A stretch of 33,853 nt of DNA from Culturomica sp. (GTDB taxonomy: Bacteria; Bacteroidota; Bacteroidia; Bacteroidales; Marinifilaceae): assembly GCA_031262745.1 (NCBI GenBank), contig JAISHE010000017.1:1-33853 (forward strand). Reading direction: 5' to 3'. Below, piece after piece: positions 2 to 3,083 of the stretch. The notes under the pieces are model-generated. The model was not told the origin of the DNA. It saw only the letters and a program-made list of their open reading frames with translations, and made no database searches. Position numbers and translations under genes: made by a program. How positions within the stretch are numbered: position 1 is the stretch's first letter; each line of letters begins with the position of its first letter.

Positions 2-2782
2 CATGTATTTCGAAATTTTTTAATTTGTGCCTGTATCTTGTTGAGCACAAATGTTTTAGCTAATAATGTGAGGTTCAATTCAAAGCCGTCTGTTGTTTTA
101 AGCGGCGACACAGTAATGATTTCATTTTCATTGTCTTGGGATCATTCGTGGCGCGATGACTTTAATTGGGATGCCGTTTGGTTATTCGGAAAATACAGCA
201 GTAGTATAGATGACAATTGGCATCATTTGAAACTTTTACCTACGGGACACAGAGTTCCCGCCGGTTTCACTTTCGATTTGGGTAATATTAGTAACTCATC
301 AGCAGGCGGTATTTTCCTGATGCGTTCCGAAAAAGGTGGTGGTAACGTTAATAGTCTGCAGTTTACAATAAAGGCTTTGCGTACCGATATGGGAGAAATA
401 ACGCAGGCGGATATTAACTATAATGAGTATTTCCTCAGTCTTTCTGCTATTGAAATGGTCTACATTCCTTACGGTGCATACTATCTTGGCGACGGAGCCA
501 CGGCAGACCGTCTCGGCACCGGCACCGGCGAACCTATTGCCGTTAGCAGCGAAGAAGCTTTGCCGATTTATAAGGTGGGAGACGACACGCTTGCAAGTAG
601 TGCCATCACAGTGCCCGCAACTTTCCCAAAGGGTTATAAGGGTTTCTATTGCATGAAATACGAAGTGAGTCAGGACGAGTACGTCAGCTTCCTCAACACT
701 TTGACCCGCTCTCAGCAGCAGGAGCGCATAGGCAATAATCTTGATTCTCTGAAAGTGGGAGAATACGTCTTCGGCAGTAAGTCGCAACCCGATCACCGTA
801 ACGGCATTTGTGTGCTTTCAAACGATTTGTCGAAGCCTGCAATATTCGGTTGCAATCTCAATCCTGCCGAGCCTTATTTCGGAGAGGATGACGGAAAATG
901 TATAGCCTGCAATTACCTTACGCCTTCCGATGTGTTGGCTTATTGCGATTGGGCTTGCCTCAGACCGATGAGCGAGTTGGAATATGAAAAGGCTTGCCGC
1001 AAGCCTTACCCGCAGCAGGCATTGGGAGGCGAGTTCGTTTGGAACTCTGCAAGCGGCGCAAGCAGTTTCACGGGTGCATCCGGTATTTCAAACAGTGGTA
1101 AGGTCAATGAAAAACCGTCTTCTCCACAGACTAACGTAAATTACAACAACGCCGCCTTTGGTCCCTTGCGCAGTGCGAGTTTCGGCACGTCTTCAACTAC
1201 GCAGACGCAGGCTGGTGCCACGTTTTGGGGCTTGATGGAGATGAGCGGCAACGTGGCGGAACTTTGTTATTCCGTTGATGCCGGCAGCAATTTCAATACT
1301 TCCGATATTTATGCTTCTCACGGCGACGGAGAAATAGCCTCTTCGGGAGCGAGCAACATTTCTACTTCCGTGTGGTCGGATGCAGCTGCTTCTTTTATCG
1401 CTAAGGGCGGGAGTTTTTCGAGCACAACCACTGATGAGTTAAGGATATCCGACAGGTCAATGGCAGCGGTTACGGACACAAGGGATGCCGGCATGGGTTT
1501 TCGTGCGGTGCACACCTTCGGCAGCAGTAGCGTGAATGTCAATGCGGGAATAATAACTGTGTCGGTACTAAATTGCACGGGGTTAATCACGGTTTCCGAC
1601 AGCGTTGGGGCAAGCGTAACGTGGAACGGTGCAGCTGTAGATGTTCCCGTCAGCTACGTTTGGTACGTCAAGGAAGGTTCAGCAACTTCTTGGACTTTGA
1701 TTCCCGATAAAGTGGAGGCGGATTTGGTTGACTACATACCCACAACTGCTGTTAGCGGAGCCGGCGGTACGGTTACGTTCAAACGTAAGGCAGTTAGTGC
1801 TGTGGGAGAAAGGGAAAGCGCAGAAGTTACCACTGCAATTCCTAATTTGGCTATTATCTTAAACCCTGCAAGTGCGAAACTCGACGCTTGCGGACCCGGC
1901 AGCGTTATAGCAAGTATTCCTTACTCGCCTATACCGCCCGTTTTCACTTGGACAACGGAAACGGGCACCAAAACCGGCGCAAGCTACACTCCTGCGTACA
2001 CTGATTTCACTGACGGCACTTTGACTAACAGGAACGTAACCATAGAATGTCTTGTGGAAGTGGGAATTTGCAGCAATAAGGATACTTTGACTGTGGCGGT
2101 TTCTCCGCTTGTGCCGAGACTTTCTTTCACTTGTGGCAACAGTTTTCTTGACACTCGCAACAGTAAATCTTATAAGACTGTGCTTATAGGCACCCAATGC
2201 TGGATGCAGAAAAACATTAATATCGGTACGCGTGTAGAGAGTACGGATTACACTACTCATCAAACAGCCGGCATTCAAAAGATATGTTATGATAATGATG
2301 AAAATAATTGTACAACTTACGGCGGACTTTACAGTTGGACAGAGGCAGTAAATGGAGAACAGACAGGTACAGGGAACTACTATGCCGCCACAGCTTATAA
2401 TAGAAAATGCGCTACTGACGGCTCCGGACATACTCAGGGCATTTGTCCTGACGGTTGGCATGTTCCGAGCGATGCGGAGTTTATGACTTTGGAAACGACT
2501 CTTGGAATGGCTGAGTCGGTTTTAAATAATACGGGTTATCGTGGCACTGATCAGGGTACTAAATTAAAAAGTATCTCTGGTTGGAACGGGCTTCTGGGTG
2601 GCTACCGGAATGCCTCCAGCGGTAAGTCCGAATACCTTGGCGCGAACGGCGCCTGGTGGTTGTCGTCAGAGAGCGGTTCTTCCAATGCGTGGGACCGGCT
2701 TCTGAGCTCCGGCGTCGCTACAGCCCGCCGTCTCAACGACACTAAGCCGTGGGGCTTCTCCGTCCGTTGTTTGCTAAATTAG
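2..2782 (+). CDS. Secreted FGE-like / FISUMP-domain surface protein (5' partial)
   Basis: Residue numbers count from the TTG at position 38. The frame is open from position 2, and the bases before 38 encode a basic then hydrophobic stretch (RNFLICACILLSTNVLA), which is a signal peptide. The true start therefore lies upstream of the window. After an N-terminal beta-rich domain (about 10-120), residues 136-493 form an FGE-sulfatase/SUMF1-like domain, with GLMEMSGNVAEL, GGSF and GMGFRAV blocks. Ig-like segments follow (about 505-690), then a C-terminal FISUMP domain (about 696-914) with IGTQCWMQKN, CPDGWHVPSDAEF and GFSVRC. The FGE block that normally carries the catalytic cysteine pair has none after GGSF, so it is probably a binding or structural fold. 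The protein is likely exported and surface-exposed; its ligand is unknown. The last ~180 bp shift sharply in base composition (see separate entry). The gene ends convergently with the HAD gene. Confidence 0.9.
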   Translation, partial: HVFRNFLICACILLSTNVLANNVRFNSKPSVVLSGDTVMISFSLSWDHSWRDDFNWDAVWLFGKYSSSIDDNWHHLKLLPTGHRVPAGFTFDLGNISNSSAGGIFLMRSEKGGGNVNSLQFTIKALRTDMGEITQADINYNEYFLSLSAIEMVYIPYGAYYLGDGATADRLGTGTGEPIAVSSEEALPIYKVGDDTLASSAITVPATFPKGYKGFYCMKYEVSQDEYVSFLNTLTRSQQQERIGNNLDSLKVGEYVFGSKSQPDHRNGICVLSNDLSKPAIFGCNLNPAEPYFGEDDGKCIACNYLTPSDVLAYCDWACLRPMSELEYEKACRKPYPQQALGGEFVWNSASGASSFTGASGISNSGKVNEKPSSPQTNVNYNNAAFGPLRSASFGTSSTTQTQAGATFWGLMEMSGNVAELCYSVDAGSNFNTSDIYASHGDGEIASSGASNISTSVWSDAAASFIAKGGSFSSTTTDELRISDRSMAAVTDTRDAGMGFRAVHTFGSSSVNVNAGIITVSVLNCTGLITVSDSVGASVTWNGAAVDVPVSYVWYVKEGSATSWTLIPDKVEADLVDYIPTTAVSGAGGTVTFKRKAVSAVGERESAEVTTAIPNLAIILNPASAKLDACGPGSVIASIPYSPIPPVFTWTTETGTKTGASYTPAYTDFTDGTLTNRNVTIECLVEVGICSNKDTLTVAVSPLVPRLSFTCGNSFLDTRNSKSYKTVLIGTQCWMQKNINIGTRVESTDYTTHQTAGIQKICYDNDENNCTTYGGLYSWTEAVNGEQTGTGNYYAATAYNRKCATDGSGHTQGICPDGWHVPSDAEFMTLETTLGMAESVLNNTGYRGTDQGTKLKSISGWNGLLGGYRNASSGKSEYLGANGAWWLSSESGSSNAWDRLLSSGVATARRLNDTKPWGFSVRCLLN
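2593..2775 (+). other. Candidate hypervariable region (DGR-target-like) at the 3' end of the FISUMP gene
   Basis: Counted directly, 2641-2760 has 78/120 G+C and 17 A, while 2281-2400 in the same domain has 48/120 G+C and 44 A. The segment is rich in NNC codons (2693-2740 includes GAC, AGC, TCC, GGC, GTC, GCC, CGC, CTC, AAC, GAC). These fall where FISUMP paralogues are, from memory, asparagine-rich just before GFSVRC. Positions 2746-2775 contain no A. NNC codons replacing AAC, at the end of a C-type-lectin-like domain, are the signature of adenine-directed mutagenesis by diversity-generating retroelements. No reverse transcriptase, Avd or template repeat is in the window, so this is an inference from pattern alone. 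Confidence 0.4.
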
Positions 2783-3000: not shown

Positions 3001-3028
3001 AAAAATAACAATGGGTTTAAACCCATTG
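3001..3028 (-). terminator. Likely rho-independent terminator of the greA-HIT-HAD unit
   Basis: CAATGGGTTTAAACCCATTG at 3009-3028 is a perfect palindrome (8-bp stem, TTAA loop). On the minus strand it is followed at once by TTATTTTTT (3008-3000), giving stem plus U-tract. It lies 55 bp past the stop codon of the HAD gene, the last gene of the minus-strand unit. Confidence 0.65.
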
Positions 3029-3083
3029 TCAAAATCCTTTGCGAGAGACGGTTTTCGGGTAATGTTAACGTCTAAGGGTCGTG

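What the first reader, a model, noticed from the sequence alone, without database searches (positions are those of the whole stretch)
2593..2775. Candidate DGR variable region at the 3' end of a FISUMP-domain gene
The end of the gene has 65% G+C and 14% A (2641-2760), against 40% and 37% in the same domain just upstream (2281-2400). Codons are mostly NNC at positions where FISUMP paralogues are, from memory, asparagine-rich, just before the fixed GFSVRC block. An A-free 30-nt stretch (2746-2775) follows, resembling an initiation-of-mutagenic-homology segment. Diversity-generating retroelements (established in Bordetella phage Mtd and Treponema TvpA) rewrite template adenines at the C-terminus of C-type-lectin/FGE-fold proteins and produce this pattern. 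The retroelement itself is not in the window, so it would act in trans or lie further left.
Basis: partly seen in the sequence, partly recalled or inferred. Interest (0 to 1): 0.75.

Follow-up and report, generated by a model that had tools for sequence, protein, structure and literature searches.

The report
Remote target of a genome-wide DGR
The end of this bacterial surface-protein gene is one of at least 31 scattered sites in the same genome that carry the mark of one retroelement, which copies a single template into them and scrambles its adenines, so one mutator appears to diversify a whole family of proteins from a distance.

Summary
The retroelement is not in the window, but it is in the same genome. 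Contig C3 carries an Avd gene, a template repeat (TR) and a DGR-type reverse transcriptase in a row. Window 2599-2775 aligns without gaps to that TR: 28 of 49 template adenines are changed, against 17 of 128 other bases (p = 1e-8). Upstream of the VR, FISUMP paralogues show no adenine bias (21.9% vs 21.4%). The same TR matches the 3' ends of 31 complete FISUMP genes (29 individually A-biased) plus five cut at contig ends. Two VRs are flawless (21/49 and 28/49 A changed, 0/128 other); others are progressively older. Six of the window's 17 non-A differences are shared by most other VRs and help rebuild an older TR; against it the counts are 29/52 A and 11/125 non-A. So the window gene was rewritten from an earlier template state and is now an aged or rarely hit target. 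No target lies beside the cassette on its contig: the known regulon works in trans. DGRs with remote targets are known (7 in Treponema, 18 loci in Trichodesmium); this is an extreme case. Current activity was not shown.

The parts
2..2782 (+). Target gene, open at the contig's left edge; 926 aa held, signal-peptide-like start, internal FGE-sulfatase domain, C-terminal FISUMP domain
   Evidence: the paralogue L040 (ORF from 6812) shows that only a few codons are missing on the left
638..1510 (+). Internal FGE-sulfatase domain; not a variable region
   Evidence: PF03781 3.1e-12; no match to the TR or VR end of the second, FGE-type DGR
2180..2782 (+). FISUMP (Fib_succ_major) domain
   Evidence: PF09603, TIGR02145
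2599..2775 (+). DGR variable region (VR), ungapped match to the TR on contig C3 (L026 9538-9362, minus strand)
   Evidence: 28/49 A changed, 17/128 non-A changed, Fisher p = 1e-8
2713..2736 (+). Block keeping an older template state (bases 2713, 2716, 2719, 2721 and 2722 agree with most other VRs, and 2736 with a common alternative, against the present TR)
2753..2775 (+). IMH-like block, A-free, one difference from the TR; its 3' core TCCGTCCGTTGT is almost invariant in all VRs of the genome

Best explanation
Window 2599-2775 is the variable region of a FISUMP-domain surface protein. It was written by mutagenic retrohoming from the template repeat of a diversity-generating retroelement that lies elsewhere in the genome (contig C3: MutS_I-like ORF, Avd, TR, reverse transcriptase). 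Shown by sequence: the cassette, the ungapped TR-VR match, the adenine bias, its absence just upstream, and at least 30 further VRs of the same TR, two of them flawless. Inferred from the known DGR mechanism: the Avd-RT complex copies the TR RNA, misincorporates at adenines, and the cDNA replaces the VR from the shared 3' block (IMH), giving exported proteins with new binding surfaces. Also inferred: each target is rewritten at its own times. The window VR was last rewritten when the TR still read NYNNATVNRNNNN, and has since gathered ordinary mutations.
For: C3 cassette: bAvd PF22296 1.6e-17, Avd PHROG 2e-18, RT with IGNLTSQ and YVDD, TR ending about 20 nt before the RT start. Window VR 28/49 A vs 17/128 non-A; codon positions 1+2 only: 26/46 vs 10/72, p = 1.3e-6. 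Upstream control: no A bias, 932/4262 vs 2098/9815; VR: 473/1192 vs 709/4165. L035 and L036: 28/49 and 21/49 A changed with 0/128 non-A. Leave-one-out older TR: 29/52 vs 11/125, p = 8e-11; its peptide resembles the TR beside a related RT in a Cloacimonadota MAG, NYNNTQVNRNNNNKQNGFSVRC.
Against: The window VR has 13% non-A differences (9% against the rebuilt older TR), well above the 2.6% mean of published TR-VR pairs that contain any (PMC6642488). Eleven remain unexplained, six of them crowded at its 5' end. No variation between cells or strains could be examined. No 3' hairpin clearly set apart from other genes was found.
Confidence: 0.93

Rival explanations
1. Relic VR: the gene was once a DGR target but has lost access (worn homology, unsuitable position or orientation) and now evolves by ordinary mutation. 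This is a question of present activity, not of origin.
For: 17 non-A differences, 11 even against the older TR. The gene is the most strongly contra-directional of all targets by GC skew, -0.146, and a reconstituted BPP-1 DGR edits contra-directional targets poorly (PMC12875486).
Against: The reading frame and the IMH-like block are intact; many VRs of this genome are equally old or older. Across the 33 testable VRs, orientation does not predict age (Spearman -0.13, p = 0.47).
Confidence: 0.45
2. Ordinary paralogue divergence or diversifying selection on a C-type-lectin-like loop, without a retroelement.
For: FISUMP families are large in related genomes that lack a close relative of this RT.
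Against: Adenine bias is confined to the VR. Two VRs differ from the TR only at adenines, 28/49 and 21/49 with 0/128 others. A full Avd-TR-RT cassette is present.
Confidence: 0.03
3. Gene conversion between paralogues: DGR-made variants arise in a few genes and are spread to the rest, including this one, by recombination.
For: Many paralogues share 75-85% identity upstream, enough for recombination; shared older-template bases could travel this way.
Against: No other VR is close to the window VR; among the pairs listed its best VR match is 79%, and A-site states look independent between VRs.
Confidence: 0.12
4. The window VR belongs to a different, unassembled TR.
For: The assembly is 96.7% complete in 78 contigs, several broken inside VRs.
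Against: Only one non-genic copy was found; the other matches with readable context end target genes in frame. The older state is shared by most VRs, which fits one template that changed.
Confidence: 0.1

Closest known systems
Treponema denticola DGR (TvpA and remote targets; PMC4891356)
   Same: One RT and TR, several unlinked target genes, VRs at the gene's 3' end, exported lectin-like proteins, some VRs matching another TR type
   Different: Two to seven FGE-type targets with a local target in the core module; here at least 31 FISUMP targets and none beside the cassette on its contig
Cyanobacterial DGRs with remote variable proteins, e.g. Trichodesmium erythraeum (PMC7517822, PMC8867640)
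   Same: Dispersed paralogous C-type-lectin genes with 3' VRs; 18 loci with TR/VR homology in Trichodesmium
   Different: Two RTs and local targets plus remote ones; linked to signalling and transcriptional control rather than exported proteins
Human-gut DGRs with Fib_succ_major targets (PMC4159848)
   Same: FISUMP domain at the C-terminus as the diversified part of an exported protein
   Different: Found as compact cassettes on metagenome contigs
Second DGR of the same genome (contig C64)
   Same: DGR-type RT, TR and VR at the end of a target gene
   Different: HRDC accessory instead of Avd, single local FGE target, 18/34 A and 0/96 non-A changed
Bordetella phage BPP-1 DGR (Mtd)
   Same: avd-TR-brt order and adenine mutagenesis (PMC12875486)
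   Different: One local phage tail target

Membership tests
Diversity-generating retroelement (the C3 cassette) | Reverse transcriptase with the (I/V/L)GxxxSQ motif | tested here: met
   L026 7859-9340 minus: GLPIGNLTSQ and YVDDM; PF00078 55.8 bits; motif from PMC3521204
Diversity-generating retroelement (the C3 cassette) | Template repeat close to the RT | tested here: met
   TR L026 9542-9355 minus, RT start 9340
Diversity-generating retroelement (the C3 cassette) | Accessory protein such as Avd | tested here: met
   bAvd PF22296 64.4 bits, cut-off 40; PHROG Avd 2e-18; NCBIfam NF033474 57.9 bits, below its 80-bit cut-off
DGR variable region (window 2599-2775) | VR differs from the TR chiefly at template adenines | tested here: met
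   28/49 A vs 17/128 non-A, p = 1e-8; upstream control unbiased
DGR variable region (window 2599-2775) | Few or no non-adenine differences, as in a freshly written VR | tested here: not met
   17/128, or 11/125 against the rebuilt older TR; met by L035 and L036. This marks an old VR; the feature is not required of every VR in multi-target DGRs
DGR variable region (window 2599-2775) | VR at the 3' end of the target gene with a shared IMH block | tested here: met
   VR ends a few nt before the stop codon; 2753-2775 matches the TR with one difference. That it works as an IMH is inferred
DGR variable region (window 2599-2775) | Inverted repeat just downstream of IMH | tested here: inconclusive
   Stems of 8 bp or more within 110 nt: 15 of 35 VRs vs 36 of 155 other gene ends; no shared hairpin
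DGR variable region (window 2599-2775) | Variation between cells or strains at these codons | not testable with these tools
   No reads and no second genome of the species
FISUMP domain family | Score above curated cut-offs | tested here: met
   PF09603 109.7 (33.9); TIGR02145 104.8 (41.65)
C-type lectin fold | Structural match to a solved CLec domain | tested here: inconclusive
   AlphaFold2 model pLDDT 76.7, pTM 0.78. No PDB match below E = 0.3, but most of the weak top hits are C-type lectins and 4eps

The most novel reading that the evidence does not exclude
A DGR with no local target acts as a genome-wide mutator of a whole paralogue family (at least 31 genes, about 3% of a 2.1-Mb genome) from one evolving template. 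Because each VR freezes the template state of its last rewriting, the VR set is a dated record of both the template's history and each target's rewriting rate.
Probability: 0.6. Interest if true: 0.75.

Novelty: new variant of a known kind. Interest (0 to 1): 0.6.

Why it matters
Large metagenome surveys look for VRs near the RT and say they miss remote targets (PMC8144416). A single TR with at least 31 unlinked targets in one small genome shows how much can be missed. It is also a natural experiment: same RT, same TR, many chromosomal sites with graded ages. That lets one ask what decides how often a target is rewritten, a question recently opened in a reconstituted system (PMC12875486). Four other genomes with related RTs had only one or two clear targets per TR, so the expansion is not the rule.

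Tried and rejected
Replication-orientation hypothesis: GC skew of flanking contigs on the VR coding strand against non-A divergence gave Spearman -0.13, p = 0.47; skew is weak in this genome. Downstream hairpin as a target mark: no common hairpin; the freshest VRs (L035, L036, L057, L053) share about 90 nt of 3' flank, but they may simply be recent duplicates. Decay from the 5' end of the window VR: 8/54 vs 3/71 non-A, p = 0.055, not a general trend in other VRs. Same-genus and family genomes: no match to the TR in the other relatives searched and no close RT in the one other genus member held, which is only 77% complete, so orthologous VRs could not be compared. PDB sequence search: nothing. 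Viral contigs: five distant FISUMP relatives, none close.

Full report
Observation. The composition shift, the A-free stretch and the NNC-rich codons are all present at the stated places, and the composition shift is unique in the window. The gene (2-2782, open at the contig edge) encodes an exported protein with an internal FGE-sulfatase domain and a C-terminal FISUMP domain.

The retroelement. The window is contig C61 of a 2.12-Mb, 78-contig genome, 96.7% complete. A search of that genome for RVT_1 gave five places, none in the window. Contig C3 (locus L026, minus strand) carries in order a short ORF with marginal MutS_I similarity, an Avd gene (10185-9847), a template repeat (9542-9355) and a reverse transcriptase (9340-7859) with IGNLTSQ and YVDD. 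The TR was found because the window VR hits it. The region is not a target gene: only the FISUMP tail is present, squeezed between avd and RT.

TR against the window VR. The ungapped alignment TR 5-181 = window 2599-2775 has 28 of 49 adenines and 17 of 128 other bases changed (p = 1e-8). Restricted to codon positions 1 and 2, to remove most synonymous sites, it is 26/46 vs 10/72 (p = 1.3e-6). As a control, changes from the paralogue consensus were counted in the same way on both sides of the VR's start: upstream A 21.9%, non-A 21.4%; inside the VR A 39.7%, non-A 17.0%. The bias is therefore a property of the VR, not of FISUMP paralogues in general.

The regulon. The TR and FISUMP searches together give 36 places besides the TR. 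31 have a complete VR at the 3' end of an open FISUMP gene; 29 of these are individually A-biased (p at most 0.003), the weakest two being L046 3395-3628 and L066. Five more are cut by contig ends inside the VR. With 156 contig ends and about 6 kb of VR in 2.1 Mb, roughly half a contig end is expected there by chance (my arithmetic). This fits either repeats or population variation and is not decisive. On C3 no VR lies beside the cassette, as far as the contig reaches (less than 1 kb beyond the first cassette ORF on one side, about 8 kb past the RT on the other). The 31 target ORFs with a readable end, several of them incomplete, total 67 kb, about 3% of the genome.

Ages. The VRs form a series from 0 to 46 non-A differences. 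L035 and L036 (contigs C18, C1) are flawless. At seven non-A template sites most other VRs share a different base; at two more (sites 120 and 142) the VRs are mixed as if the template once had A. Putting these back, with the window left out of the count, gives a template reading NYNNATVNRNNNNKSNGFSVRC, close to the TR beside a related RT in a Cloacimonadota MAG (NYNNTQVNRNNNNKQNGFSVRC). Against it the window VR has 29/52 A and 11/125 non-A changes (p = 8e-11). The simplest reading is that the template changed, that only a few targets have been rewritten since, and that the window gene is not one of them. Whether it can still be rewritten is open.

Function. Several paralogues start with lipoprotein-like or ordinary signal peptides, and the variable codons fall in the last strands of the predicted domain. 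By analogy with TvpA and Mtd the VR should form a ligand-binding face; the fold search does not prove the C-type lectin fold.

Relation to what is known. This is a DGR by the features tested. Remote targets and VRs matching another TR type are known from Treponema denticola (PMC4891356), and 18 loci with TR/VR homology from Trichodesmium (PMC8867640); a bacterium with nine DGR loci has 15 targets and 21 VRs (PMC10907252). One survey mentions TRs with dozens to hundreds of VR copies, in its main example many within one gene (PMC6642488). I found no report of one TR with more than 30 separate target genes and no local one, but only an open-access library was searched. In four other genomes with related RTs each TR had one or two clear targets.

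Limits. One genome, no reads, no second strain. TR-VR alignments of the oldest VRs contain indels, so their counts are approximate.

Noticed in passing
L028 (contig C64) 177-4138, minus strand: A second, canonical DGR in the same genome: RT, HRDC accessory (PF00570), TR 1820-1949, VR at the end of a PEGA + FGE-sulfatase gene; 18/34 A and 0/96 non-A changed.
   Followed up: yes
L075, L077, L078 (Rikenella) and L060 (a genome of the window's family): Several TR-like FISUMP-tail open frames in a row next to one DGR-type RT (three in L060, at least three in L075, about ten weak ones in L077): possible multi-template cassettes.
   Followed up: partly
L029 (contig C52) 919-2451: A reverse transcriptase matching AbiP2 (PADLOC, 632 bits), an anti-phage type, in the same genome.
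   Followed up: no
L027 (contig C53) 418-1497 and L026 82-828: Group II intron-type reverse transcriptases; the C3 one looks truncated, seven kilobases from the DGR.
   Followed up: no
window 3007-3032, L026 9711-9736 and many other gaps between genes: A repeated palindrome, AACAATGGGTTTAAACCCATTGTCAA, next to the TR and downstream of several VR genes; also a frequent CGTAGGGGCGTTGCATGCAACGCCCC-type hairpin.
   Followed up: partly
L026 7859-8150: The RT frame runs on into tandem repeats, giving a repetitive C-terminal tail of about 100 residues beyond the usual DGR RT length.
   Followed up: no
G047, G057, G086 (same order): FISUMP families of 29 or more copies; in G047 the tested TR has only one clear target, so large FISUMP families need not be large DGR regulons.
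   Followed up: partly
L035, L036, L057, L053 downstream of the VR: The freshest VRs share about 90 nt of 3' flank with nested inverted repeats; either recent duplication or a target mark.
   Followed up: partly
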